From Candidatus Accumulibacter sp. ACC003 (GTDB lineage Bacteria; Pseudomonadota; Gammaproteobacteria; Burkholderiales; Rhodocyclaceae), in contig NZ_CAJQTX010000001.1 in NCBI RefSeq assembly GCF_907163085.1, forward strand, positions 265,001-329,000: a DNA stretch of 64,000 nt, in the 5' to 3' direction. Each line of letters opens with the position of its first letter. Within the stretch, counting starts at the first letter, position 1. This document shows positions 18,560 to 32,925 of the stretch, in pieces. The notes below the pieces were generated by a model, which did not search any database, was not told where the DNA came from, and saw only the letters and a program-made list of their open reading frames with translations. The position numbers and the translations under genes are program-made.

Positions 18560-19264
18560 CCGGTCAGGCAGGGCTTGCACGCTGGCCAGGGAGCGAGGCC
18601 CGCCGACGAGCAGATTGGCGTCGCGTCGATCGCCCGCGTCGGCGTGAGCGAGGCTTCTTGCTCGACCCGCAAGCGCCTTTGCTCTTCGGGCGAGCCTTTG
18701 ATTGGCGTTCGCGAGCCCGCGAAACGCGGCGGCGAAGCTCGCTGCTCGATCGGCGTCACGGCGATGTGCGGCGGCAAGGCTCCGAACTTCACGCGCCAGC
18801 CAAAAAGCCTGGCCGGCAAGGCTTTGATCTGCGTTCGTCAGCCCGCGAAGCGCGGTGGCGAAGCTTTTTGCTCGATTGGCGTCACGGCCAACTGTCCCGG
18901 CAAGGTTCTGAACTCCGCGCGCAAGGCTAAAAGCCTTGCGCGCAAGCCTTTTAGCCTTGCGCGCAAAGCGCAGAGGCTTGCACCTCGAAGCTTTGATCCT
19001 TGCGCGCGAAGCTAAAAGCCTTGCGCGCAAAGCGCAAAGCCTTGCCCGCAAGGTCGCGAAGCTTGTACTTGGGCTTGTTTTTCATCTGGATCGAGCATCG
19101 ACGCTTTGCGCGCAAGGCTTTTTGCTTTGCGGCCAAGGCTTTGATGCTTGCACACCGAGGTTCAGAGGCTTGCGGCCAAGCCTTTGAGGCTTGCCGGCAA
19201 GGCTCGGAGCTTTGCGCCTGAAGCTCCGAGCCTTGCGCGCCGGGCGCGAGGGCTGCTGCGGCTC
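18560..19264. repeat. Degenerate 21-22 bp tandem repeat array
   Basis: From ~18918 to 19256 the sequence is a tandem of ~15 degenerate 20-22 bp units of the form CTTGCGCGCAAGGCTNNNAGC. Many units are themselves palindromic (GCCTTGCGCGCAAGGC). From 18688 to 18920 there are two ~105-bp imperfect direct copies (18688-18800 and 18812-18920) beginning GCTTTGATCTGCGTTCG. Both strands stay open and would encode heptads like LARKAQS, but no frame has a credible start or domain, so I treat it as non-coding. It begins immediately after the stop codon of the 19265-19732 gene and lies downstream of it in its direction of transcription. Confidence 0.8.
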
Positions 19265-19732
19265 TCAGGGAGCGGCGACCGGGGTCGGTTTACGCTTGCG
19301 GCTGTAGCGACCCGCCATCGCTTCCTTCAATGAATCGAGCCCAGCACCCTTGCCGAAGACCTTGGCTATCGCGTAACCCTCGAGCGCGGCGTTCAGGATG
19401 TCGCTACCGAGCGCCATTTCGGTGTCGTCGGCGCGCGCCACCAGCTGCCGCAGGCTGGCCAGGTGCGGTCGCAAGAGATCGAGGTTGCGGAGATCGCGCT
19501 CGGCTTCGGCGAGATCGAGTTCGGGCGGGATAATGTTCTTGTTCTGCGCCAGGACGATCAAGGTTTGCCGGCAAAATGCTTCCGACTTGTCGCCCATCTT
19601 GTTCAGGCTGCGCCGCTGGTCGACCGAGAGGTCGATCAGGCCGCCGAGTTTCTCTTGCAGGGTTTCAATCGCGGCGGCTATCGCCGCCAGGTCGTCGGGG
19701 CTGATATTCAGCGATACCATGTTCTGGGTCAT
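19265..19732 (-). CDS. Small protein of unknown function beside repeat array
   Basis: A 155-aa soluble, mostly helical protein without a domain name I can give. Notable segments are SLNISPDDLAAIAAAIETLQEKL at the N-terminus, LSVDQRRSLNKMGDKSEAFCRQTLIVLAQN in the middle (the MGDKSEAF core looks strongly constrained) and ARADDTEMALGSDILNAALEGYAIAKV near the C-terminus, which ends in a basic tail (YSRKRKPTPVAAP). From memory, related small proteins with an MGDK core occur in several phyla, but I could not search. The start ATG at 19732 has a GGAGA upstream. The gene reads straight into the 21-bp repeat array, so both may be transcribed together. Confidence 0.82.
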   Translation of the reverse strand: MTQNMVSLNISPDDLAAIAAAIETLQEKLGGLIDLSVDQRRSLNKMGDKSEAFCRQTLIVLAQNKNIIPPELDLAEAERDLRNLDLLRPHLASLRQLVARADDTEMALGSDILNAALEGYAIAKVFGKGAGLDSLKEAMAGRYSRKRKPTPVAAP

Positions 19733-20344: not shown

Positions 20345-21562
20345 ATGCCCTTGCCTATCAAAATTTTCATAAGTTATTGCCACCGAGACGAGGGGTTGCG
20401 TAAAGACTTAGAAGTACACCTGTCACCTCTGCAACGAGAAGGGGTGATCGAGCATTGGCATGACCGAATGATCATTCCCGGTGATGGATGGGAAGACGCG
20501 ATCGACGAAAAGCTTGGGTCGGCTGACTTGTATTTGTTTCTGATTAGTCCTGACTTCATCGCGTCGGATTACTGCTATGGAAAGGAGTTAGCCCGCGCGC
20601 TTGAGCGCCATCGAGCTGGAGAGGCCTTAGCTCTTCCCATCGTCGTTAGACCGGTAGAGTGGAAAACGACAGCGCTCGGTCAAATTCAGGGCTTACCAAA
20701 AGACGGAATTGCCGTTACGACATGGACAAACTCAGATGAAGCTTGGGTAAACGTTGTTAGTGGCGTAAGAAGTGCCTGCAATAAAATTTCCGAACGATTG
20801 CGCGCAAGAAATGCTTCCGGAGCCGCGTTTCGCACCCAAAAAATAAATTCTGTCCTAACGAGCTTGTTTGAGCGTATTCAACAGCGCCACAACTCCGAGA
20901 CGCCTCCGGTTTCTGGGTTAGCAACCGGGCTGGTTGACCTCGACTCTTTTATTGGAGGATTCGAGCAGAAGGAGCTAATACTTATTGCCTCTGCTCCGCA
21001 GATCGATCGGCTCGGCGTGATATTGAAATTTATCTCCAATTTCTCGGTGGAGATCGGACTTCCATGTGCACTGGTTTGTGCAAGACACGATGAAGTTTAT
21101 TTGGGGAGCAGGTTCCTCTGCGCTACCGGGAAGCTTCCGGTACGAGAAGTGTCATTAGGAATGCTGAGTGACGAACAATGGTCCTCTTTGTCCCATGTTC
21201 TGGACGGGGTGCATGAGGCGCCGCTGTCCTTTGTCTCGTATGCCGGCCAAACCCTTGATGAGCTGTTTCAACAGCTCGACGAGTTGGCAAAGCAATATGG
21301 AGTACTCGCTGCAGTTGCTATTGATTCGCTAGATCACCTCGCAGGAGACAAGGGAAGAAACGTTCAAGCTCTGAGGAACTACGCCAGGCGGACCAATAAA
21401 GTTGTCTTAGTGGGCTGCGGGCTAGAAAGGAATCCTGACTCCAGACCCAACAAACGACCGATCCTCGCCGATATTGGGCCTTGGGTGCCGTTAAACGCAT
21501 CTCGTTATACACAACTCACTCAGCATAACGTGGCCGCCCGATGTGCCCTGACAAATAGTTGA
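20345..21562 (+). pseudogene. TIR / DnaB-like fusion protein, 5' part, cut by an IS
   Basis: Residues 4-140 are a TIR domain: IKIFISYCHRDEGLRKDL, an RMIIPGDGWEDAIDEKL loop, then LISPDFIASDYCYGKELARAL, whose Glu-81 aligns with the catalytic Glu of NAD-cleaving TIR domains. From about 185 onward it matches the C-terminal RecA-like domain of replicative helicase DnaB: GLATGLVDLDSFIGGF (DnaB: TG..dLD...GG), a Walker-B-like AVAIDSLDHLA and PDSRPNKRPILADI. The Walker A position reads ASAPQIDRL instead of the usual GKT form, so ATP binding is probably lost. Native sequence stops at 21497; the last 21 codons to 21562 come from the inserted element. The 3' part is at 23001-23182. The start ATG is at 20345 with weak ribosome binding site. 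Confidence 0.88.
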
Positions 21563-22991
21563 CTGATTTTGTCTGGTATACCCCTTGCTTTCCCTTTGCC
21601 ATTTTCATAAGGATCGGGCGATGGCAAACTGGGCGGGAGACGAATTTGGCGGGGCTGAACTGGGGGACGGACGTCTGAGACGGAGGCTGATCAAACTGGC
21701 GACACGCTTTGCAGAGCAGCCGACGGCGAGCATACCGGGCGCCTGTGGGGATTGGGCGGAGACTGTGGCGGCGTACCGTTTCTTCGATCAGGCCCACGCT
21801 GGCAAGCGCGGGTTGAACTGGCAATCGATCCTGCAACCGCACATGGATTGCAGCCAAAGGCGCATGGCACAACACCCGGTGGTGTTGTGCCTTCAGGACA
21901 CCACCGAACTGGACTTCAACGGTCAGGAGATCGAAGGACTCGGGCCGCTCTCGTACGAAGCCCAGCGCGGCATGTATCTGCACCCGACCTATGCGGTGAC
22001 CCCGGAACGCGAACCGCTCGGGGTGATCGACGCCTGGATGTGGGCGAGAGAAGCGAAAGCGGCCGACGGAAGCCGGCCGGGCATCAGCGAGAGCACGCGC
22101 TGGATTGAAGGCTACGAGCGGGTCGCCGAAACCGCGGCGGGGATGCCACAAACGCGATTGGTCTATGTGGCCGACCGCGAAGCGGACATCGTCGGCCTGA
22201 TGCAGCGCGCCCAGGCGTTGGGAACGCCGGCCGACTGGCTGATTCGCGCCAAACACAACCGCTGTTTGCCGCAAGGCGGCAAACTGTGGGCGGCAACTCT
22301 TGCCGAAGCGCCCCTCGGCGAGATCGAATTCACTCTGGCATCGCGGCACGGGCAGCCAAAACGGATCGTGCGCCAGCAGTTGCGAAGCCATGCGGTCGAC
22401 CTCCCGGCTCGTGACACGGACGGCCGCCACATCAGAGTGACCTGCCTGATCGCCACGGAAATCGGGGCGCCCGCCGGCTGCAAGCCGGTCGAATGGCGCT
22501 TGCTGACCAATCGTAAAGTTGCCGATCTTGAGGCGGCCGTCGAATTGATCGACTGGTATCGCTGCCGCTGGGAGATCGAAACCTTGTTCCATGTGCTCAA
22601 GAACGGCTGCCGGGTCGAGGCCTTGCAACTGGGCAGCCAGAGCAAGCTGGAACTGGCTCTGGCGGTCTATCTGGTTGTTTCCTGGCGCCTTGCCCGCCTG
22701 ATCCGCCTGGGACGCATCCACCCGCAGTGGCCTGCCGATCTGCTCTTCTCCGAAACGGAATGGGCCGGCGCCTTTATCCTCAACAAGAAGAAACCACCGA
22801 AGAAGGTGCCGAGCATTCGCGAGGTCATCCGTTTGATCGCGCAGCTCGGCGGATTCCTCGCCCGCAAGGGCGACGGCGAACCCGGCGTCAAATCCCTCTG
22901 GCTCGGCATCCAGCGCTTGCGTGATTTCGTCTCCGGCGTAGAGCATATGCGCGAGCTCCGTCATGTCATGTGAGTTGTGTATAACGGGATG
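21498..22991 (+). mobile_element. IS4-family (IS50 group) insertion sequence
   Basis: A complete 1494-bp insertion sequence. Terminal inverted repeats are 21 bp with one mismatch: CATCTCGTTATACACAACTCA at 21498-21518 and the complement of CATCCCGTTATACACAACTCA at 22971-22991. It is flanked by a perfect 9-bp target duplication CGTTAAACG (21489-21497 and 22992-23000), the size usual for the IS50 group. One transposase gene fills it. Removing the element plus one duplication rejoins the TIR/DnaB-like frame exactly. Confidence 0.95.
21621..22973 (+). CDS. IS4-family transposase (Tn5/IS50 group)
   Basis: A 450-aa DDE transposase. The N-terminus WAGDEFGGAELGDGRLRRRL...SIPGACGDWAETVAAYRFF is typical of Tn5-like transposases. 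Catalytic Asp residues lie in VLCLQDTTELDF and VYVADREADI, and the Glu in YRCRWEIETLFHVLK, which fits the Y-x2-R-x3-E-x6-K signature of the IS4 family exactly. The ATG at 21621 has AAGGA upstream; the frame opens 12 codons earlier without support. The gene appears intact, ending inside the right inverted repeat, so the element could still be active. Confidence 0.95.
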   Translation: MANWAGDEFGGAELGDGRLRRRLIKLATRFAEQPTASIPGACGDWAETVAAYRFFDQAHAGKRGLNWQSILQPHMDCSQRRMAQHPVVLCLQDTTELDFNGQEIEGLGPLSYEAQRGMYLHPTYAVTPEREPLGVIDAWMWAREAKAADGSRPGISESTRWIEGYERVAETAAGMPQTRLVYVADREADIVGLMQRAQALGTPADWLIRAKHNRCLPQGGKLWAATLAEAPLGEIEFTLASRHGQPKRIVRQQLRSHAVDLPARDTDGRHIRVTCLIATEIGAPAGCKPVEWRLLTNRKVADLEAAVELIDWYRCRWEIETLFHVLKNGCRVEALQLGSQSKLELALAVYLVVSWRLARLIRLGRIHPQWPADLLFSETEWAGAFILNKKKPPKKVPSIREVIRLIAQLGGFLARKGDGEPGVKSLWLGIQRLRDFVSGVEHMRELRHVM

Positions 22992-23000
22992 CGTTAAACG

Positions 23001-23182
23001 AGCATATCGATCACGTCATCTGCGTCTATCTGGACCAAATTTATAACCCCGACACCGTAGACATAGGCGTAGCTGAACTACTCATTCAAGGGATGAATCA
23101 TACTCGTTCCGGCACGGTGCGAGTAAGTTATCTCCCGGAATCCCAGTCCTACACCAATCTAAAACAGAAGAAGTCGCGATAG
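23001..23182 (+). pseudogene. TIR / DnaB-like fusion protein, 3' part
   Basis: After removal of the insertion sequence and one CGTTAAACG, codon 385 (G from 21497 plus AG) continues in frame for 60 residues to a TAG at 23180-23182. The tail starts EHIDHVICVYLDQIYNPDT and continues GVAELLIQGMNHTRSGTV, matching the end of DnaB (IEqDADvv.f..R...Y......giaEliiaKqRnGptG.v). The reconstructed protein is 444 aa. This confirms that the C-terminal half is a DnaB-type core domain and that the insertion is what broke the gene. Confidence 0.88.
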
Positions 23183-23580: not shown

Positions 23581-24699
23581 ATGCCCAAGAAAGTGCTTCT
23601 CGTTGGCTGCAAATACACAGGAGCCCCCATCCCTGACACGGCGATCGATGTCCTTGGACTTGTACGACCCAGAATCGACAAAGACAGGGCTGCTTACGCA
23701 TTGTATGAGTACGACCTAATCATCATCAATCCTGAAAGTTACTCGCATTTTATTTTTGGAGTCCCAACAGAGCACTCGATCTCCGACAACGAGTTGTGGG
23801 ACTTGAAAGCCGAGAACAACAACTACGATCTGGATACCGCCTTCGACTCTTCTGACCGTACCGACGAGCTATCGGCAGCAATTGAGCAGGGCACACGAGT
23901 AATTTGGCTTCTCGCTACGCAGAAGCACATCAAGTTCTTCGGACTTCGCAGCGTTTTCAGTGGCTATGCGAATGCAACTGCCAAGAAGTTGGTGGAGTCC
24001 GGAATCCTTCGCGAAAAGAAGTCCCGCCGCCTTTCCACTACCCCGGATGTCAGAGAGTTCAAGCTGTATTTCGAGCGGTTGCAGACCGATGGATGGAGGC
24101 TCTGCCTCTCCGATCACCAAGACATACTTGAGCCGTTTGCATTGTCGCCTGAGGGATACTGCCTTGGCGGTCGCGTGAAGGTTAGCGCTGCTTTCGCCTG
24201 GCTCTTGACGCCGCCGACAAGTCAGGATGCTATGAACATTCTTATCTGCTGCGCACTAGGCCTGGAAGCGGTTCATGTTGCTTCGCCGCCATATTACGGG
24301 ATATTTCTTAGTCATACAGCCGCAGATAAGCCGTTTGTCCGGGAGCTGAAGAGCCGACTCGAAGCCAAGGGAGTAAAAGATGTGTGGCTGGACGAAGCTG
24401 AAATCCTTGTCGGGGACTCTCTGACCAAGAAGATCCAGGAGGGGCTGGAGAAAACCAAGTACATCGGGGTTGTTCTCTCGCCTCGATCCATTAAATCAGC
24501 ATGGGTCGAAAAAGAATTGGAGATTGCAATCAATCGCGAGATTTCGACGGGCGAAGTTGCCGTGCTTCCACTCCTGTACGAGAAGTGCGAACTTCCGGCG
24601 TTCCTCGTGGGGAAGATGTATGCAGACTTCACCTCTCCAGCCGAGTACGACGAGAGCCTCGAAAAATTGCTACGGCGACTTAAGGCTGAGAAAATCTAA
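23581..24699 (+). CDS. TIR domain protein with unknown N-terminal domain
   Basis: A 372-aa protein. The C-terminal TIR domain (about residues 239-365) shows YGIFLSHTAADKPFVRELKSRLEAKGVKDVWLDEAEILVGDSL, then KYIGVVLSPRSIKSAWVEKELEIAIN with a candidate catalytic Glu near 312. The first ~235 residues form a separate alpha/beta domain starting KKVLLVGCKYTG, with YDLIIINPESYSHFIFG and RVIWLLATQ as likely beta strands. This could be a Rossmann-like (GATase- or SLOG-like) sensor domain, but I cannot name it. The start ATG has GAGGA upstream. As a TIR protein in an island it likely works in anti-phage immunity by NAD cleavage; this is inferred. Confidence 0.87.
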   Translation: MPKKVLLVGCKYTGAPIPDTAIDVLGLVRPRIDKDRAAYALYEYDLIIINPESYSHFIFGVPTEHSISDNELWDLKAENNNYDLDTAFDSSDRTDELSAAIEQGTRVIWLLATQKHIKFFGLRSVFSGYANATAKKLVESGILREKKSRRLSTTPDVREFKLYFERLQTDGWRLCLSDHQDILEPFALSPEGYCLGGRVKVSAAFAWLLTPPTSQDAMNILICCALGLEAVHVASPPYYGIFLSHTAADKPFVRELKSRLEAKGVKDVWLDEAEILVGDSLTKKIQEGLEKTKYIGVVLSPRSIKSAWVEKELEIAINREISTGEVAVLPLLYEKCELPAFLVGKMYADFTSPAEYDESLEKLLRRLKAEKI

Positions 24700-24958: not shown

Positions 24959-25201
24959 ATGACTCCGTCTGTCCGTGGTTTGATGTTGGGCGCTCTTGGC
25001 GTGCTTATTTTCAGCCTCACCATGCCGATCACAAAAATTGCACTTTCTGGTGACGTGATGTCTGCATGGTTTGTCTGGGCCGGTCGTGCGGTGTTGGCAG
25101 CATTCGCTGGAATTGCTTATTTGCTTCTAACGAAGAGGAAGCTGCCGCCGCGTGCGGCTTGGTGGCCTTTGATTGGCACGGCGGCGGGCGTTGTCTTTGG
25201 C
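24959..25201 (+). pseudogene. EamA/DMT family transporter, 5' part
   Basis: The first 81 codons of a drug/metabolite (EamA) transporter: two predicted membrane helices (GLMLGALGVLIFSLTMPITKIAL and WFVWAGRAVLAAFAGIAYLLL) with the typical SGDVMSAWFVWAGRA region. The frame is cut after GVVFG by the IS21-like element and resumes exactly at 29691 with WPLLNSIALQW. Base composition is that of the host chromosome, so this is resident DNA. The 24700-24958 gap upstream holds no recognisable gene. Confidence 0.88.
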
Positions 25202-25672
25202 CCTCGACGCTCACGAAACCTGACCCTTTTTCGCTCACTGGAACGGATCCAGGAGATGCGCAGGAGTCGGCCATCTGCGCGATGCCGGCAGTGATCGAAT
25301 GAGGTTTTGTGGCGGCGCGGCGGCGCGGCGGCGCGGCGGTGCGGCGACACGCTTGGTCCGACGGGGATTTTTTTGAGGGTAAATGGATGCGCTCGGCGCG
25401 TGCGGCAGGGAAGCCTCGGAGCTGGGTCAAGGGCAGGCGGCGGCTTTTTGCCGCCTGGCGAAGCCTCCCTTGACGCAGCGGAGGGGCGCGAGACTGAGGG
25501 GTGGCAGTAAGCGCGGCAGTATCGTGCTTACTGCCTTGGAGACGGGTGTTTGCGTGGATCGAATTCGCGCCGATCGCCGTTTCAGCTACAGACCATCGTG
25601 GCCCTCCCGGCGCGCGAGCGGGCGACCAGCTCAGCCGCTGGCGAGCGAGCCAGTGCACACGCCGCCGCGCCT

Positions 25673-26512
25673 TCAGGACGCTGCGGACTCGTCCGTTGGG
25701 GCGACGTTCCTCGACGCCGAGCCTTTCGCCGTCGCTACCGAGGCCGCCGTCGTGATCGTCGGGGCGCTTCCTGGTTCGCTGCGCAGAGAAGGTCCGCTCA
25801 AGCGCAGGATGATGCAACGATGCTGAAGTCGGTCGAGCAGCGCATCGACGAGCGGCTTCCTCTGGAACAACTCGTACCAGTCGGGCAGATCGAGATTCGT
25901 CGTGATCAGCGTTGACAGCCCCAGGCTATAGCGCTGATCCATCAGGCGGAAGAAGGCGTTGACCTGTTCCGGCTTCAGGTTGAGGTAGCCCAGCTCATCG
26001 ATGGCGATCAGCGGCATGCGGCACAGCTGGTTGAGCAGCGCCACCGTCGAACGATCGGCAAGCGAGGCATACAAAGCGTCGAGCAAAGCCTGCGCGGTGT
26101 AGAAGCGCGCGCGATAACCGTTCAGACACGCCTCGCGAAGCAATCCCACCGCGATCCCGGACTTGCCGGTTCCCGGCGGACCGATCAACAACACGTTCTC
26201 GCCCCGGCGCAGGAATTCCAGTCCGGCCAGCGCCATCACCTGCGCCTTGTTCACGCTCGGCTGCCGCGCAAAAGGAAACGACTGCAAGGTCCACGGCCAA
26301 GGCAAATGCGCCTGGCTCAGGCGATAAGCCAGACTCTTCTCACGTCGGGCCGCGTCTTCCGCGCCGAGTAGACGGAAGAGCACCTCCGGAACCGGCGTCC
26401 CCTGGCGCTCGGCCAAATCGAGCTCCTCATCGAGCACCGCCGCCATCCCCGACCAGCGCATCTGCCCAAGCAAAGCCTTCAGACGCTCACGCATCATCAT
26501 CATCAGCTCCAT
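25673..26512 (-). CDS. istB: IS21-like helper ATPase IstB
   Basis: A 279-aa AAA+ ATPase that assists IstA transposase in IS21 transposition by target selection. Walker A GPPGTGKSGIAVGL near residue 110, Walker B LIAIDELGYLNL and sensor STLITTNLDLPDW are all intact. The N-terminus RERLKALLGQMRWSGMAAVLDEELD matches the IstB N-terminal helical domain. The C-terminal ~25 residues (ITTAASVATAKGSASRN...) are low complexity and extend slightly beyond the usual family length. The start overlaps the end of istA by 26 nt. Confidence 0.94.
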   Translation of the reverse strand: MELMMMMRERLKALLGQMRWSGMAAVLDEELDLAERQGTPVPEVLFRLLGAEDAARREKSLAYRLSQAHLPWPWTLQSFPFARQPSVNKAQVMALAGLEFLRRGENVLLIGPPGTGKSGIAVGLLREACLNGYRARFYTAQALLDALYASLADRSTVALLNQLCRMPLIAIDELGYLNLKPEQVNAFFRLMDQRYSLGLSTLITTNLDLPDWYELFQRKPLVDALLDRLQHRCIILRLSGPSLRSEPGSAPTITTAASVATAKGSASRNVAPTDESAAS

Positions 26513-27920
26513 CGTCGAGATTGAAGAACTCCCCCGCCACCTGCTGCAGGATCATGTGCTCCAGGCGACCCATGTCGAACAGACCGAACTGCAGCGCCTG
26601 TGCCACGGCCGCCAGCAAAGGCTCCTGCGGATAGGTCCGCTTGAAGTCCAGCAAGCGGCGCAAAGGTCGTACCCCCCGGCCATGCGCCTGCCGAACCAGC
26701 GCCGCCACGTACGCATCGAGCAGCGGGTCGTGCCCCTGCAGCAAAATCGCCTCGCGCGGCGGCGTGCGCGGCCGCGGCTGCGGGGTCGGGTGATGCCCAG
26801 GAAGCTTCTGCTTCGTATCGCGCACGCCAAGCAGGCGGGTATGCACCGCGAGCAGCCGATCACCCCGGCAGACCCTGACCTCGGTGGCATACAGATAGAC
26901 GCTCAGCGCCTGGCCCACCCAGCGTTCGGGCACTGAATAGCGATTCGTCTCAAGCGACACGAAACCTTGCAGATCGACCACCCGCTCGACGACTTGATAG
27001 ACCGGCGGCAGCACCGCCGGCAGCGGCTGCAGGCAAGGCCTCTCGACGGCGTAGGCGGCGTTCGGCGCCACCCCCAGAGCGCGCTTCGGTTTGGCATTGG
27101 CGACGTTCTCGCACCAGGCCAGCACCTGCGCGTTCAGGTCGGCGAAATCGCGAAACGTCCGGCCGGCCAGGAAATTGCCTTCGATCCAGGAAAAAGGTCT
27201 TTCAATCCTCCCCTTGCGATCAGGTTTGTTCACCGCGTGCGCGCGGAAAGCGAAGCCCAGCGTACGTGCCAGGGCGACCATCTCGGGCGCAAACACGGCC
27301 TCGTCGCCGGCCCCGGCGACGACGATCACGCTGGTATTGTCGATGACGCAGGTCGGGCAGCTGCCGGCCATGAAACGGACGGCTTCGAGCAGGAACTGCT
27401 TGGCTTCGAAACGCGTGAAACGCGGAAAGTACTGAACGAAGAGCCGCCGCGAATACGCCAGGATCAGTGACGCGCATTGCGCCGTCAGCGGCTTGCCGGC
27501 CAGGATCACGCGATGCGGCGAGGTGTCGTGCTGCATCTCCTGGCCTGGGGCGAAGTAATATTCGCCGGCGCGTTTCGGCGGCGTGCGCAGATCGGCTTCG
27601 CGGATCCAGCGGGTCAGCGTGCTGTAGCCCGGACGAAGGTCCATCTCCGCCGCCAGCATCTCCTGGATCCGCACCCCATTGCCGCGCGCGCGCTCGAAGG
27701 CCGAGACCAGCCACAGCCGAACCGGCGCTGGGCACGCAACCGGCGCCGGGCACGCGGCTTGCCGCGCACCCTCTGCGGTATCGGGCGGAGCCGCCACGGG
27801 CGAGCGCAAGATACGGCGAACGGTGTTACGCGAGAGCTTCAAGAGCCGGCTGATCTCGCGCAGCGCCAGACCTTGCTGATGCAGGGTCTGCACGGCTTGA
27901 TAAATCTCGGGCGATTTCAT
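26487..27920 (-). CDS. istA: IS21-family transposase IstA
   Basis: A 477-aa DDE transposase. An N-terminal helix-turn-helix (LHQQGLALREISRLLKLSRNTVRRIL) is followed by the catalytic core: QHDTSPHRVIL (first Asp), CVIDNTSVIV (second Asp) and RKGRIERPFSWIEGNFL (Glu). The Mu-type C-terminal beta-barrel region VSLETNRYSVPERWVGQALSVYLYATEVRV is present. The gene begins inside the end of the ParB-like gene (95-nt overlap), so expression is coupled. Complete and apparently functional. Confidence 0.94.
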   Translation of the reverse strand: MKSPEIYQAVQTLHQQGLALREISRLLKLSRNTVRRILRSPVAAPPDTAEGARQAACPAPVACPAPVRLWLVSAFERARGNGVRIQEMLAAEMDLRPGYSTLTRWIREADLRTPPKRAGEYYFAPGQEMQHDTSPHRVILAGKPLTAQCASLILAYSRRLFVQYFPRFTRFEAKQFLLEAVRFMAGSCPTCVIDNTSVIVVAGAGDEAVFAPEMVALARTLGFAFRAHAVNKPDRKGRIERPFSWIEGNFLAGRTFRDFADLNAQVLAWCENVANAKPKRALGVAPNAAYAVERPCLQPLPAVLPPVYQVVERVVDLQGFVSLETNRYSVPERWVGQALSVYLYATEVRVCRGDRLLAVHTRLLGVRDTKQKLPGHHPTPQPRPRTPPREAILLQGHDPLLDAYVAALVRQAHGRGVRPLRRLLDFKRTYPQEPLLAAVAQALQFGLFDMGRLEHMILQQVAGEFFNLDDGADDDDA

Positions 27921-28821
27921 GGGGGCATACTTTCCTCAGGTGGCACTGAAGAGACGCCAGCGCCAATTGCAAAGCGCCGACCGCGGCGGTGACGGCGGGC
28001 GGCAGCTCCGCTGGCGAGGGCGCCAGGGCGAACAAACGCCGAGTCAAGCGGGCGCCCACCGCGTCGAGAATGCGGATGTCGGCCAGGACTTCGCCTTCCG
28101 GACCCTCGCGCAGGCTCTCGGCGCTCTTCTCGTCGGCTTTGGCGGTCAGCGAATTGAGCAACAGTTGCGGCGCCTCGACCATCCGCTCGCGCACCGTCCG
28201 CGAAGCGCCTTGATAGTGCGCGAACCAGGTCGCCAGCTGCCGGGTCGTCAGCGGCGTCGTGTGCAAACTCTCCAGTAGCTGTTCGGCATGGGTGTTGTTG
28301 GCGCGCGCCAACGGGCCGAGAATCCGCACCGCCGCCCAGGTCGAGACCTTTCCCTGGCGTATCGCCGTCAACACCGCATCCGAGAGGACCGTCACAAGTT
28401 GCAGGCGGCGACTGACCCAGCTCACGTCGCGGCCGCAGCGGCGGGCGATTTCATGCTGGCTCAGGGGGCCGCTGGCGATCAGTTCGCGCAGCAGCAGCGC
28501 TTCTTCGATCGGCGCAAACGCGCGGCTGCGGGTTCGTGCCAACACGCCCAGCAGGCCTTGCACCGGATCGCCGTCCCAGCATTCGACCTCGGCCGTATCC
28601 CGGCCGAGTTGCCGCAACGCGGCGACGCGTCGATAGCCGTCGAGCAGGATCGCCGAGTTGCCCTCGCCGGCGACCGCGATGCACGGGACGAGCTGGCCGT
28701 TGACCGCGATCGACTGGGCCAGACGCGTGATGGCCGCCGTATCCAGCACGCGAAGCTCGGCGTAGCGCAACTCCAGGCGGTGCAAATCCAGAGTCTGAGC
28801 CGTAGCGGCCGTGTGATCCAT
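27826..28821 (-). CDS. ParB-like nuclease/partition domain protein in IS21-like element
   Basis: A 331-aa protein of the ParB/RepB/Spo0J type. The N-terminal ParB domain shows RLAQSIAVNGQLVPCIAVAGEGNSAILLDGYRRVAALRQLG (about residues 34-74) and a helix-turn-helix follows (LSQHEIARRCGRDVSWVSRRLQLVTVLSDAV, about 120-150). A helical C-terminal part follows with no recognisable partner-binding domain, and no ParA is present. It sits inside the insertion sequence and overlaps istA by 95 nt, so it is likely an accessory transposition or regulatory protein rather than a chromosome partition factor. Confidence 0.88.
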   Translation of the reverse strand: MDHTAATAQTLDLHRLELRYAELRVLDTAAITRLAQSIAVNGQLVPCIAVAGEGNSAILLDGYRRVAALRQLGRDTAEVECWDGDPVQGLLGVLARTRSRAFAPIEEALLLRELIASGPLSQHEIARRCGRDVSWVSRRLQLVTVLSDAVLTAIRQGKVSTWAAVRILGPLARANNTHAEQLLESLHTTPLTTRQLATWFAHYQGASRTVRERMVEAPQLLLNSLTAKADEKSAESLREGPEGEVLADIRILDAVGARLTRRLFALAPSPAELPPAVTAAVGALQLALASLQCHLRKVCPHEIARDLSSRADPASARSGAARDQPALEALA

Positions 28822-28907
28822 GCGCTTGACCTCCTATGGCATCCAGCCTAGCGAGGCGACCGCCGCAAGGCGATCGAGTCCTCTCTTTGCAAGCCGCGGC
28901 AGGGGCC

Positions 28908-29339
28908 TCAGGGCGAGGCGCAAGCGGCTGAAATAACGGTGATTTCGACCATCCACGCGTCCATCTTTGCAAACGACGCGTCCACCACCGGTGACAAACG
29001 GTAAGTGCCTGAGCGCAGCGGGATTTCCGGCTTTGACGCGTCCATCTTTGCAACGCCGGCCGGGGTGGGCGCGCGTTCCCGCTGCCGAGCCCGATTGCGT
29101 GCGACGTACTCCGGATGCTGCTCTCGATACGCCCGCCAGTAGTCGGGGTGACGCTCCGCCCAGGCCTTCTGCGCACGCTTCTGGTTATCGCGATAGTCGG
29201 GATCGTTCTGGCGCTTGGCCGCCTGCCAACGCCGTCGCCGTTCGCGCTGGCAGGCGGCGGCCGAACAGAAGCATTGGTCGGGGTTCTGCGGACGCGGCCG
29301 AAACGGCTGATGACACGCCTCGCACTGTCGGAATTCCAT
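28908..29339 (-). CDS. Zinc-finger-like accessory protein of IS21-like element
   Basis: A 143-aa basic protein. The N-terminus MEFRQCEACHQPFRPRPQNPDQCFCSAAACQRERRRRWQ has a Cys cluster (C-x2-C...C-x-C-x4-C) likely to bind zinc, followed by a long Arg/Lys/Gln-rich helix (QNDPDYRDNQKRAQKAWAERHPDYWRAYREQHPEYVARNRARQRER) with HPDYWRAYR/HPEYVARNR repeats. DNA binding is plausible. The ATG at 29339 is chosen because it starts the Cys motif; the frame opens 31 codons upstream. It is the first gene of the element's leftward operon. Confidence 0.8.
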   Translation of the reverse strand: MEFRQCEACHQPFRPRPQNPDQCFCSAAACQRERRRRWQAAKRQNDPDYRDNQKRAQKAWAERHPDYWRAYREQHPEYVARNRARQRERAPTPAGVAKMDASKPEIPLRSGTYRLSPVVDASFAKMDAWMVEITVISAACASP

Positions 29340-29690
29340 GACGGTTTCTCCCCACACGACGTCGTGCGGGAAGAATGGGCCTGGCCGGGCTTCCTGTCGC
29401 GCTGCCGGAGATCTGGCGAGGCCTGACCGCAACCTGGCGGCGGTCGGACTGCACTGACGCGGCGAGCTTGGCGAAGGGGCTCGACCGCGCGATCAGAAGG
29501 TCGGGCAGGCGGAGCGACGCGCGCTGCCGCGTTGCCAACGGGCGTGGCCTGCCGAACCAAGCTTGGGGAGTTACGAAGTTCGCTTCCCGGGAACCACTAC
29601 GGGCCTCAACACGGGCTCAATGGGTCACGCTTGATGGGTCAGCTTTGGTGAGCAAAGGCGGGTCAGTTCCGGGGAGCGTCAAGGTTTGGC

Positions 29691-30323
29691 TGGCCTTTGC
29701 TCAATTCGATTGCGCTGCAATGGGTGTCGTCGAGCCACTCAGCGCTGATCAATGGCATTCTTCCTCTGGCCACCGCCGTTATCGGTGCGACGCTGAACCG
29801 TGAACGCTTGCCAGGCGCTTTCTGGGCGTGTGCGGTGGTGGGCACTTGTCTGGTCTGCGGCTACGCCTGGGTTCATGCCTCGGGAGCATTGCACACCCCT
29901 GATGCGTTGCTGCTCCTGGGGGTTTTGCTCGGCGGGCTGGGTTATGCTTGTGGCGCCATCGCCACGAAGTACATCAGCGGTCCGGAAGTGATTTCCTGGG
30001 CGCTGATCATGGGCTTGCCAGTGACGCTGCCGTTTATGCTGTACGTCAGCCCGCCTGGCCTGGCCGCGGTGTCCGTGAGCGGCTGGCTGGCTTTGGTTTA
30101 TCTGGGATTGATGAGTCAATGGATCGGCTTCTTTTTCTGGTATCGCGGATTGCGCATCGGCGGTATTGCCAAAGTCAGTCAGGTGCAGTTGGTGCAACTG
30201 TTCCTGACGCTGGGATTTTCTGCCTTAATACTGGGCGAAGCTATCGAGCCGATGATGCTGCTTGTTGCCGTGCTTACCGTTGGCCTGATCTTTCTGGGTA
30301 GACGTGCCAGCAGCAGCCGGTAA
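29691..30323 (+). pseudogene. EamA/DMT family transporter, 3' part
   Basis: Codons 82 onward of the transporter cut by the IS21-like element, starting [38 protein letters not shown], the typical end of the first EamA repeat. The second EamA repeat follows (LLLLGVLLGGLGYACGAIATKYIS... to ...ALILGEAIEPMMLLVAVLTVGLIFLG). Joined with 24959-25201 the protein is 291 aa, normal for the family. From 29768 on this sequence is duplicated at 33047. Confidence 0.9.
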
Positions 30324-30680: not shown

Positions 30681-30815
30681 CGGGGCATCCCGCCGGGGTC
30701 AGGTCTTGACTTTTGCCCAGGGCACGGGGAAAGACCTGAGCTCCAAGAAGTCCGTATCAACCTTGATCTAAACGAATTGATGGCGAAAGCAACGACGCCA
30801 AAGGAGCTCCAGTGA
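30666..30815 (+). pseudogene. Fusion of gshA start with the tail of a truncated gene
   Basis: A 49-codon frame that starts with the gshA start region (MLKFT) and, after the repeat junction at 30680, continues into foreign sequence ending LQEVRINLDLNELMAKATTPKELQ. The tail looks like a genuine protein C-terminus and its TGA overlaps the ptuA GTG start by 4 nt (GTGA). It is probably the remnant of the gene that originally preceded ptuA in its operon; identity unknown. Confidence 0.6.
30699..30739. repeat. Small inverted repeat at cassette junction
   Basis: TCAGGTCTT at 30699-30707 and AAGACCTGA at 30731-30739 form a perfect 9-bp inverted repeat with a 23-nt loop, 19 bp inside the left junction of the ptuAB cassette. 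It recalls the GGTCAGGTCTTGACTTTTGC type of REP sequence known beside RAYT transposases, but no such transposase is present. Confidence 0.55.
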
Positions 30816-32236
30816 AACTTACGAAATTAAACCTAGACAATTTTCGCTGCTTTGAGCATCTGGAAATGGATTTGCACCCTGAGTTGACCGTACTCGTCGC
30901 CGAAAACGGTCAAGGAAAATCATCCGTGCTCGATGCACTTAGGATTAGCCTCTGGCCGTTCATCAGCAGCTTTGACCTTGCAAGAAATGCGTTTAATGAT
31001 CCCGGCAATGCCATCGCTATCGACGATGTGCGGCTCATAAACCTGGAAAGCGGGGATATGGCGCGCCAGCTTCCGTCGCGCATCGCCATGACTGGTGACT
31101 TCGGCGTAGGTCACGAAAAGACCTGGATTCGCTATCGTGACAAAGAGGCGAAGCTAACCAAGACAAAGGACGACGGCGACACCGGATTTATGCGGAAATG
31201 GGCTTCGGTCATTCAATCTCAGATTCGCGACCCGAATAAGCCAACCCTTGACCTACCAGTGTTCGGATACTACGGAACAGGTCGCCTCTGGGCTCAGAAA
31301 AAACTGACCGAAACCAGTCGCGGCAAGGACGACACGCGCGAGACAGACTTTTATGTCCGCACCTTTGCATACCTCAACTGCCTTGATCCAGCTTCGTCTT
31401 ACAAGCACTTTCAGGAATGGTTTATTCTCGCGAGCCAGATCTATTGGGAAGCCGTGATGAAACACCTTGAAGGCAAAGGGCCGGAAAGCGCTGTTAAGTC
31501 TGCCGAAGAGCCCTTCCAGGTAGTTCGGCAAGCCATAGATTCCCTGTTGCGGCTTAGCACTGGCTGGCACAACCTTGAATACAGCCATAGTCATGAGAAA
31601 TCCCTGATTCTCCATCATGGGCAGCACGGCACGCTCAAGGTGGAGGTGCTTAGCGATGGAATTCGAAGCGTGTTGGCGATGATTGGTGACATTGCCTACC
31701 GTGCCTACAAACTTAACCCGCATCTAAAAGCGGAAGCTGCGCGCGAGGCTCGTGGTGTTGTGCTGATCGACGAAATCGAAATGCACTTGCACCCCTCATG
31801 GCAACAGCGTGTGCTTGGGCAGTTACGAGAGGTTTTCCCGAATATCCAATTCGTTGTCACCACTCATAGCCCGCAAGTACTTACCAGCGTTGATGCCTCT
31901 TGTGTACGCTTGCTCAGGGAGGAAATCGATCCAGAAACTGGTGCGCGAAAAACACTCGTGAAACCGGTAGTTATGCAAACGAAAGGTGTCGCAAGTTCCG
32001 ATGTGCTCACCCAAATCATGGGTGTTAGTCCGACTCCACCGGTGGAGGAGGCTGGTTGGTTTACTGAATACACAGCCAAAATCGAGAACGGCACGTATGA
32101 AGATGCAGATGGTTTGACCTTGCGGCAAAAACTAGAAGTCCATTTTGGCTTGCAGCATCCCCTCATGCTAGATGCGGACAGGCTGATTCGCTTTCAGGCA
32201 TTCAAGCTGCGCAAGAAATCGACGCCACAGGACTGA
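30812..32236 (+). CDS. ptuA: Septu-type AAA ATPase PtuA
   Basis: A 474-aa ABC/SMC-type ATPase of the OLD/PtuA group. Walker A AENGQGKSSVLDAL near residue 31, a FGYYGTGRLW segment near 150, the ABC-like signature region LSDGIRSVLAMIGD near 281, Walker B GVVLIDEIEMHLHP near 312 and a switch His in FVVTTHSPQVL are present. In Septu systems PtuA binds ATP and forms a complex with the HNH nuclease PtuB that degrades invading DNA. The start is a GTG with AAGGAG five bases upstream. ptuB follows after 5 nt. Lower GC than the surroundings and two flanking truncated genes mark it as acquired. Confidence 0.92.
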   Translation: MKLTKLNLDNFRCFEHLEMDLHPELTVLVAENGQGKSSVLDALRISLWPFISSFDLARNAFNDPGNAIAIDDVRLINLESGDMARQLPSRIAMTGDFGVGHEKTWIRYRDKEAKLTKTKDDGDTGFMRKWASVIQSQIRDPNKPTLDLPVFGYYGTGRLWAQKKLTETSRGKDDTRETDFYVRTFAYLNCLDPASSYKHFQEWFILASQIYWEAVMKHLEGKGPESAVKSAEEPFQVVRQAIDSLLRLSTGWHNLEYSHSHEKSLILHHGQHGTLKVEVLSDGIRSVLAMIGDIAYRAYKLNPHLKAEAAREARGVVLIDEIEMHLHPSWQQRVLGQLREVFPNIQFVVTTHSPQVLTSVDASCVRLLREEIDPETGARKTLVKPVVMQTKGVASSDVLTQIMGVSPTPPVEEAGWFTEYTAKIENGTYEDADGLTLRQKLEVHFGLQHPLMLDADRLIRFQAFKLRKKSTPQD

Positions 32237-32241
32237 TCGCC

Positions 32242-32925
32242 ATGCACAAACTGGATCGCTCTGGCGTCGCAGCACCAGATTGCCTGGATGGCTATGACTA
32301 CAAAACCCAGACTTGGGATGACTTTGGTAATGAATGCAAGAAATTGCTTCGTGCCGCACTGGTTCAAATGCAAGGGAGTCCAGGTGTTACGACAGAAGAC
32401 GCGTCCGAATATGGCGTCCGCTGCGCCTATTGCGAAGGCCAAATTTTCCATGAAGGACATATCGAGCACTTCCGTCGCAAAAACCTGAAGCACCATCCCG
32501 AACTGACTTTTGATTGGCATAACCTTTTTCTTGCCTGTGGCTCCAAGTGGCATTGCGGTCACTACAAGGATCGCAAATCGGCTCCGCCGTACGACCCTGA
32601 GCAGCTCATCAAACCTGATGAACACGACCCGGAGGACTATCTCTACTTCCATTCATCGGGCGAAGTCCGTGTCCGGGATCAGTTGAGTGCCGCAGACAAA
32701 CTCCGGGCTGACGCGACAATTCGAGTCTTTGGTTTGGATAACCAGACACTTGCCGGCAAACGAGCGCGGGCGGTCTCCAAATTCCGGCAGATGAAGTCTG
32801 AGGATTTTGAAGAGATCGCTTCGTGGGGCGATTTTGATCGACGGAAATACTTCGAGGGTGAAATCGAAGCTACTCGGTGGGAGCCCTATGCCACCACTAT
32901 CAAACACTTTTTACAGCGCACCTAA
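32242..32925 (+). CDS. ptuB: Septu-type HNH endonuclease PtuB
   Basis: A 227-aa HNH nuclease of the PtuB / retron-associated family. The core is RCAYCEGQIFHEGHIEHFRRKNLKHHPELTFDWHNLFLACGS with a later HCGHYK: two Cys pairs for zinc, the catalytic His in IEHF and the DWHNLFLAC motif. A Cys-x-His-x-Cys-x2-His element (SKWHCGHYKD) follows. The C-terminal half is helical and probably contacts PtuA. The gene lies 5 nt after ptuA. No reverse transcriptase or msr/msd sequence is present nearby, so this is a Septu-type pair rather than a retron. Confidence 0.92.
   Translation: MHKLDRSGVAAPDCLDGYDYKTQTWDDFGNECKKLLRAALVQMQGSPGVTTEDASEYGVRCAYCEGQIFHEGHIEHFRRKNLKHHPELTFDWHNLFLACGSKWHCGHYKDRKSAPPYDPEQLIKPDEHDPEDYLYFHSSGEVRVRDQLSAADKLRADATIRVFGLDNQTLAGKRARAVSKFRQMKSEDFEEIASWGDFDRRKYFEGEIEATRWEPYATTIKHFLQRT

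What the first reader, a model, noticed from the sequence alone, without database searches (positions are those of the whole stretch)
20345..23182. TIR domain fused to a DnaB-like domain, cut by an IS but exactly reconstructable
The 5' frame (20345-21497) and the 60-residue tail at 23001-23182 rejoin in frame when the IS50-group element and one CGTTAAACG duplicate are removed. The result is a 444-aa protein: TIR domain (1-140) plus the whole C-terminal core domain of replicative helicase DnaB. The tail ends like DnaB. TIR proteins act in anti-phage immunity; a DnaB-type partner domain would tie the effector to replication. I know of no characterised system of this design.
Basis: partly seen in the sequence, partly recalled or inferred. 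Interest (0 to 1): 0.82.

Follow-up and report, generated by a model that had tools for sequence, protein, structure and literature searches.

The report
TIR enzyme fused to dead DnaB
A bacterial gene, now broken by a jumping DNA element, joined a likely NAD-cleaving immune domain to a copy of the DNA-copying motor DnaB that has lost its motor residues, which suggests a bait for viruses that target that motor, but only this one broken copy was found.

Summary
ORF 20345-21497 carries a TIR_2 and a DnaB_C domain. An IS50-group element (21498-22991) with a perfect 9-bp target duplication cuts it. The 59-aa tail at 23003-23182 matches the C-terminal end of DnaB. The pieces were searched apart and not joined.

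The TIR glutamate is conserved. TIR relatives carry various other C-terminal modules.

Best explanation: a one-protein abortive-infection receptor, with pseudo-DnaB as bait or scaffold and TIR as NADase. This mechanism is inferred. No second TIR-DnaB protein appeared in 1,492 overlapping genome searches, one scan of about 85,000 genomes (close relatives only), plasmids, phages or IMG/VR, nor in any of the 32 TIR loci fetched. A broken singleton: new variant of a known kind.

The parts
20345..20842 (+). TIR part (aa 1-166, boundary chosen by me; Pfam TIR_2 aa 7-115), putative catalytic Glu81 at 20585-20587
   Evidence: Pfam 4.3e-13; PADLOC PDLC00420 1e-55; Glu81 invariant in 14 of 14 aligned TIRs, the window included, and aligned with Glu in Cat1 (9mud), 3jrn and 7uwg
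20843..21497 (+). linker and first part of the DnaB-like C-terminal domain (pseudo-ATPase)
   Evidence: Pfam DnaB_C aa 191-377, 1.9e-20; PDB DnaB chains, best 9e-16
20990..21013 (+). degenerate Walker A: SAPQIDRL where DnaB has GRPSMGKT
   Evidence: alignments A1 and A5
21083..21085 (+). Arg247 where DnaB has the Glu of the S(L/M)EM motif
   Evidence: Glu in 31 of 31 phage DnaBs, Arg here; also Glu in 13 of 13 other rows of A1
21323..21325 (+). Asp327, Walker B aspartate, retained (IDSLDHL for IDYLQLM)
   Evidence: Asp in 31 of 31 and here
21489..21497 (+). left copy of the 9-bp target duplication CGTTAAACG
21498..22991 (+). IS50-group (Tn5-like) insertion sequence, 1494 bp; transposase 21585-22973 (+)
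   Evidence: Dimer_Tnp_Tn5 1.3e-31, Tnp_DNA_bind 1.1e-24; 5 spanning copies in the genome
22992..23000 (+). right copy of the 9-bp target duplication
23003..23182 (+). cut-off tail of the DnaB-like domain (59 aa + stop); GMNHT where DnaB has the KQRNG finger
   Evidence: NCBIfam DnaB models, best 7.7e-7; 2vye/2r6a residues 391-444

Best explanation
The gene encoded a single-protein antiviral receptor. The N-terminal TIR domain is the effector: an NAD+ cleaver that acts when several copies are brought together. The C-terminal domain is a catalytically dead imitation of the replicative helicase DnaB. Most likely it serves as bait: a phage protein that grips DnaB (a helicase loader, origin protein or helicase inhibitor), or a phage or host DnaB ring into which it mixes, clusters the TIR domains and triggers NAD+ loss and abortive infection. 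Shown by sequence: the fusion, loss of the ATPase signature, conserved TIR glutamate, swappable partner domains in TIR relatives, foreign-looking composition, and inactivation here by an IS50-group insertion. Inferred: NADase activity, clustering, the bait role, the phage trigger.
For: TIR_2 and DnaB_C in one frame. Of 39 columns conserved at 90% or more in 31 phage DnaBs, 21 are kept and 18 changed. Changed ones include R71A, G75D, K76R (Walker A), S99C, E101R, M102H, Y182S, S212C and Q213G; some others are mild (K198R, E219D, L231I, S229A). Kept ones include G45, G49, D52, D54, D181, R216, R221, K224, R225, P226 and D230 (the 31 rows come from a scan with patterns AGRPS[MI]GK and [ND]KRP.., so those columns are biased). 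The same ATP-site losses appear against 13 rows fetched by similarity to the window protein, not by motif: 11 from genomes of the order, 2 from plasmids. Tail: K418 and R420 of the 2r6a chain are Gly and Asn. TIR Glu81 invariant in 14 of 14 and aligned with Glu in Cat1, 3jrn and 7uwg; that this Glu is catalytic is recalled. Ten of 32 fetched TIR loci were scanned with Pfam: they include nSTAND_NTPase4, NB-ARC + TPR, TPR and WD40 partners. Precedents: SpbK, a TIR NADase activated when a dodecameric phage portal clusters it (PMC12847820, abstract); inactive enzyme domains proposed as decoys in bacterial conflict systems (PMC7159879, passages). Third-position GC 0.49-0.54 against 0.76 for the genome's own dnaB.
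Against: Only one copy is known and it is broken, so selection on the DnaB-like domain cannot be tested. Losing ATPase residues also fits decay or plain structural reuse. No phage trigger or partner gene is visible. None of the 32 fetched TIR loci carries a DnaB-like stretch, in the same frame or elsewhere in the fetched DNA. The domain's branch is so long (8.95 changes per column) that its source among DnaBs cannot be placed.
Confidence: 0.4

Rival explanations
1. The pseudo-DnaB is only an oligomerisation scaffold: it builds a ring or partial ring that holds TIR domains in reach of each other, while the trigger is sensed otherwise, comparable to SIR2 effectors working with HerA rings (comparison recalled; related papers seen only as a listing).
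For: DnaB_C homology, DnaB being a hexamer (recalled); many structural Gly/Asp/Arg positions kept; TIR activity through clustering is known (PMC12847820 abstract).
Against: DnaB rings normally hold nucleotide at the subunit interface (recalled), and here both Walker A and the K/R finger are lost, so a self-assembled ring is less likely than for an ATPase-competent domain.
Confidence: 0.25
2. An accidental or decaying fusion: a TIR gene acquired a DnaB fragment by recombination, the DnaB part is drifting, and the insertion hit a gene of little value.
For: No second example found; very long branch; gene broken in this genome.
Against: The frame is open through 384 codons and the tail, with coding-type base periodicity in the three parts. 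Residues such as R110, G126, W133 and the RPNKRP..D stretch are kept while ATP-site residues are changed; this argues only moderately against drift.
Confidence: 0.24
3. The DnaB-like domain still binds single-stranded DNA or the replication fork and recruits the TIR to replicating phage DNA, sensing DNA rather than a protein.
For: DnaB homology; some basic conserved positions kept (R216, R221, K224, R225).
Confidence: 0.1
4. A working TIR-helicase: the DnaB part is an active ATPase motor.
For: Overall DnaB_C match.
Against: Walker A Gly and Lys, catalytic Glu, Gln and K/R finger all replaced.
Confidence: 0.01

Closest known systems
ThsB-named / TIR_2 bacterial TIR proteins (PADLOC PDLC00420)
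   Same: TIR domain of the same model (1e-55), N-terminal placement, conserved Glu
   Different: C-terminal partner is DnaB-like, seen in 0 of 10 TIR relatives scanned with Pfam and 0 of 32 by a local comparison with the window's domain; no ThsA hit in the PADLOC rows shown
Replicative DNA helicase DnaB (TIGR00665; 2r6a, 2vye)
   Same: C-terminal core by sequence, 28-32% identity to 13 DnaBs, tail included
   Different: TIR in place of the DnaB N-terminal part; ATPase residues lost; 85.5 bits against a cut-off of 385.25
SpbK (Bacillus subtilis TIR abortive-infection protein)
   Same: One TIR protein that is an NADase and is activated by clustering (PMC12847820, abstract only)
   Different: SpbK responds to a phage portal; here the second part is DnaB-like and the trigger is unknown
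Inactive-enzyme decoy domains in vWA-MoxR/VMAP and related conflict systems
   Same: Idea of an inactive version of a cellular enzyme as a decoy (PMC7159879, passages)
   Different: Those are multi-component systems; the held text has 0 occurrences of DnaB

Membership tests
TIR NADase effector | TIR domain by profile | tested here: met
   Pfam TIR_2 50.3 bits, cut-off 28; the second TIR model PF01582 stays below its cut-off (18 against 21.3)
TIR NADase effector | catalytic glutamate | tested here: met
   Glu81 invariant in 14 of 14; aligned with Glu in Cat1, 3jrn and 7uwg
TIR NADase effector | NAD+ cleavage | not testable with these tools
   needs an assay
Thoeris (ThsA/ThsB) | ThsB-type TIR | tested here: met
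   PDLC00420 1e-55 over aa 6-155, profile 3-152 of 319; only the TIR half of the profile is matched
Thoeris (ThsA/ThsB) | ThsA gene immediately beside | tested here: not met
   The next larger ORFs on each side, 23581-24699 and 19265-19732, have no ThsA hit. Nine stretches were scanned in all; for PtuA and PtuB only the best 25 rows were shown; other window ORFs were not scanned
DnaB replicative helicase | DnaB C-terminal domain by profile | tested here: met
   DnaB_C 73.8 bits, cut-off 27; tail 7.7e-7
DnaB replicative helicase | Walker A, catalytic Glu, K/R finger | tested here: not met
   all replaced
DnaB replicative helicase | full-length DnaB model score | tested here: not met
   TIGR00665 85.5 bits against 385.25, model positions 147-372; TIR lies where the N-terminal part would be
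DnaB replicative helicase | RecA/DnaB fold and ring | not testable with these tools
   structure prediction switched off
IS4 family, IS50 group | Tn5-type transposase, 9-bp duplication, inverted ends | tested here: met
   the 9-bp length as a group feature is recalled

The most novel reading that the evidence does not exclude
A bacterial 'integrated decoy' receptor: a dead copy of the host's replicative helicase fused to a TIR NADase, so that any phage protein that hijacks DnaB sets off cell death. The host's own replication machine would thus be guarded by a bait of the same shape.
Probability: 0.32. Interest if true: 0.86.

Novelty: new variant of a known kind. Interest (0 to 1): 0.52.

Why it matters
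Many phages must capture or replace the host replicative helicase (recalled). An immune protein that carries an ATPase-dead DnaB as its recognition part would be a bacterial counterpart of the integrated decoys of plant immune receptors, and would give a testable answer to how single-gene TIR systems recognise infection. It would also show that bacterial TIR proteins can recruit copies of housekeeping enzymes as sensors.

Tried and rejected
Active TIR-helicase: rejected on motif loss. Thoeris membership: not filed, because no ThsA was seen beside it. The second TIR gene at 23581-24699 as an obligatory partner: not supported. Full-length relatives sit on Agrobacterium (54%) and P. veronii (53%) plasmids, and no DnaB gene is annotated in the two regions I opened (hypothetical proteins there were not scanned).

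Search for a second TIR-DnaB protein with piece 1 (384 aa). Order: 300 genomes, E limit 1e-20; the listed best matches cover the TIR part or the DnaB part, none both (weaker rows not listed). Class: 369, limit 1e-40. Genus: 28, 1e-29. Family: 395, 1e-40. Phylum: 398, 1e-46. Order of G472: 2, 1e-46. That is 1,492 genome searches with overlap, the window's own genome among them, and 0 fusions besides its own. Limits: in many genomes only the first few candidates were scored, and a very distant fusion would fall below the thresholds. One scan of genome contigs (84,980 species; exact 8-residue words, so close relatives only) gave 8 TIR loci. The matches in L032 and L037 ran past the TIR: L037 carries TPR repeats and the L032 frame stops after the TIR. 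Plasmids: 291 records with a match; 2 cover 80% or more, both annotated as replicative DNA helicase. Phages: 179 records, 0 at 80%. IMG/VR: DnaB part 0 relatives, whole piece 0, TIR profile 1 locus. Metagenomes could not be searched.

Tree of the DnaB-like domain with 56 others: the window branch is too long to place. BLAST favours bacterial and plasmid DnaBs (best 110 bits, the top 24 rows) over the 31 viral rows used (best 97), weak evidence for a cellular source. A joint alignment of TIR and DnaB rows misaligned and was dropped. Paper searches listed no TIR-DnaB protein; passages of PMC7824862 treat TIR and DnaB separately; PMC7075850 has 0 occurrences of DnaB or helicase. A search for integrated decoys listed plant-immunity and plant-pathogen papers (listing only). 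The library holds open-licence papers only. The host organism was not identified by any search. On recheck I lowered the bait odds slightly (0.42 to 0.40; bold reading 0.33 to 0.32) and raised the accidental fusion to 0.24, because.

Full report
What is there. The frame that starts at ATG 20345 runs 384 codons before the insertion and carries two domains: TIR_2 at residues 7-115 (4.3e-13) and DnaB_C at 191-377 (1.9e-20). PADLOC places the TIR part with a model named ThsB, PDLC00420, at 1e-55. NCBIfam sees residues 160-377 as DnaB-like, far below the cut-off for a true replicative helicase (85.5 against 385.25 bits). At 21498 a 1494-bp element begins whose transposase has the Tn5 domains. The element is bounded by near-identical inverted ends and by the 9-mer CGTTAAACG on both sides. 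After it, 59 residues and a stop at 23003-23182 match the end of DnaB by themselves (7.7e-7, 2r6a residues 391-444, weak at E 0.014). The finding is therefore real and the coordinates are right.

The insertion. The same element occurs in five copies spanning it in this genome, plus one long partial copy (5-1019 of 1494) and three weak matches. I looked at the flanks of six copies. Both ends were found by my probes in three, and two of these, the window's own and L048, have perfect 9-bp duplications; L047 does not. The near-identity of the copies and the perfect duplication suggest a recent break. The gene's third-position GC is 0.49 (TIR part), 0.54 (DnaB-like part) and 0.54 (tail), against 0.76 for the genome's own dnaB. 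The neighbouring TIR gene (0.61), PtuA (0.57) and PtuB (0.55) are also low. This fits an acquired defence region.

The DnaB-like part is very probably a pseudo-ATPase. Against 13 canonical DnaB C-terminal domains, 11 from genomes of the same order and 2 from plasmids, the window domain is 28-32% identical. Where 12 of them have GRPSMGKT (the other GRPSIGKS) it has SAPQIDRL; the Glu of SMEM is Arg; the Gln of ALSQL is Gly. Against 31 phage DnaBs, 21 of 39 columns conserved at 90% or more are kept and 18 are changed. The kept set includes the Walker B Asp and the RPNKRP..D stretch. The viral rows were chosen by patterns that include the Walker A and KRP motifs, so conservation in those columns is partly built in; the first comparison does not have that bias. 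In the tail, K418 and R420 of the 2r6a chain are Gly and Asn. That these residues form the ATP site and the finger is recalled knowledge of DnaB. ATP hydrolysis by this domain is thus very unlikely.

The TIR part looks active. Glu81 is invariant in 14 of 14 aligned TIRs and falls on a Glu in Cat1 (9mud), 3jrn and 7uwg in profile alignments. The TIR subfamily is modular. Ten of the 32 TIR loci I fetched were scanned with Pfam. One carries an nSTAND NTPase, one NB-ARC with TPR, one strong TPR repeats and one WD40 repeats. One has a marginal TPR hit and one a receiver hit below its cut-off. Four show only the TIR. None of the ten carries DnaB_C, and none of the 32 has a frame similar to the window's DnaB-like part anywhere in the fetched DNA. 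In such proteins the C-terminal part is generally thought to sense or assemble (recalled), and in the window this slot holds the pseudo-DnaB.

How common it is. Searches with piece 1 at order, class, genus, family and phylum level (300, 369, 28, 395 and 398 genomes, overlapping) and one of 2 genomes found no other protein matching both parts. In many genomes only the first few candidates were scored. A scan of about 85,000 species genomes found 8 TIR loci, but that scan needs exact 8-residue words and reaches close relatives only. Plasmids, phages and IMG/VR gave no fusion. Within these limits the design is rare or unique. Distant or metagenomic relatives are not excluded.

How it most likely worked. 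A TIR NADase can be activated by clustering, as shown for SpbK, where a phage portal does it (PMC12847820, abstract). A dead copy of DnaB is well suited to be gripped by phage proteins that handle DnaB, or to mix into DnaB rings. Inactive versions of cellular enzymes have been proposed as decoys in other bacterial conflict systems (PMC7159879, passages). I therefore favour a bait receptor (0.40), then a plain scaffold (0.25), then an accidental or decaying fusion (0.24). None of the activity steps was tested. The structure could not be predicted, and the source of the domain among DnaBs could not be placed on a tree. BLAST scores lean to cellular rather than viral DnaBs.

Novelty. TIR effector proteins with one further module are a known kind; a DnaB-like pseudo-ATPase as that module was not found in my paper searches, which cover open-licence papers only. 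I file it as a new variant of a known kind, with a bolder reading (an integrated decoy of the replicative helicase) left open. The score is held down because there is one copy, it is broken, and nothing about its function has been tested.

Noticed in passing
window 23581-24699 (+): A second TIR protein (372 aa, N-terminal part without a Pfam match, TIR_2 at 241-364) about 400 bp downstream; near-full-length relatives at 54% on Agrobacterium plasmids and 53% on a P. veronii plasmid, and one at 67% in 1 of the 296 other genomes searched in the family.
   Followed up: partly
window 30812-32925 (+): A Septu-type pair: PtuA-like ATPase (PADLOC 2.7e-168) followed by a PtuB-like protein (2.9e-69).
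   Followed up: partly
window 24959-30323: An EamA transporter gene appears to be split: EamA matches (a weak one of 22.1 bits, below the cut-off, and one of 64.7 bits) lie on both sides of an IS21-type IstB gene, a transposase-like gene (Mu-transpos_C_2) and a ParB-like gene.
   Followed up: partly
window 18689-19204: Imperfect tandem arrays with units of 126 bases (2.1 copies) and 21 bases (6.4 and 4.7 copies) upstream of the TIR gene; nature unknown.
   Followed up: no
NZ_CP049159.1 699400-699834 and NZ_CP049319.1 481267-481701: In two Caballeronia plasmids a TIR gene of this subfamily lies about 1 kb from an IS4-family transposase gene related to the one in the window.
   Followed up: no
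L032 322-1944: In genome G472 a TIR of the same subfamily sits at the C-terminal end of a longer open frame whose N-terminal part reads like an ATPase (read by eye, not scanned).
   Followed up: no
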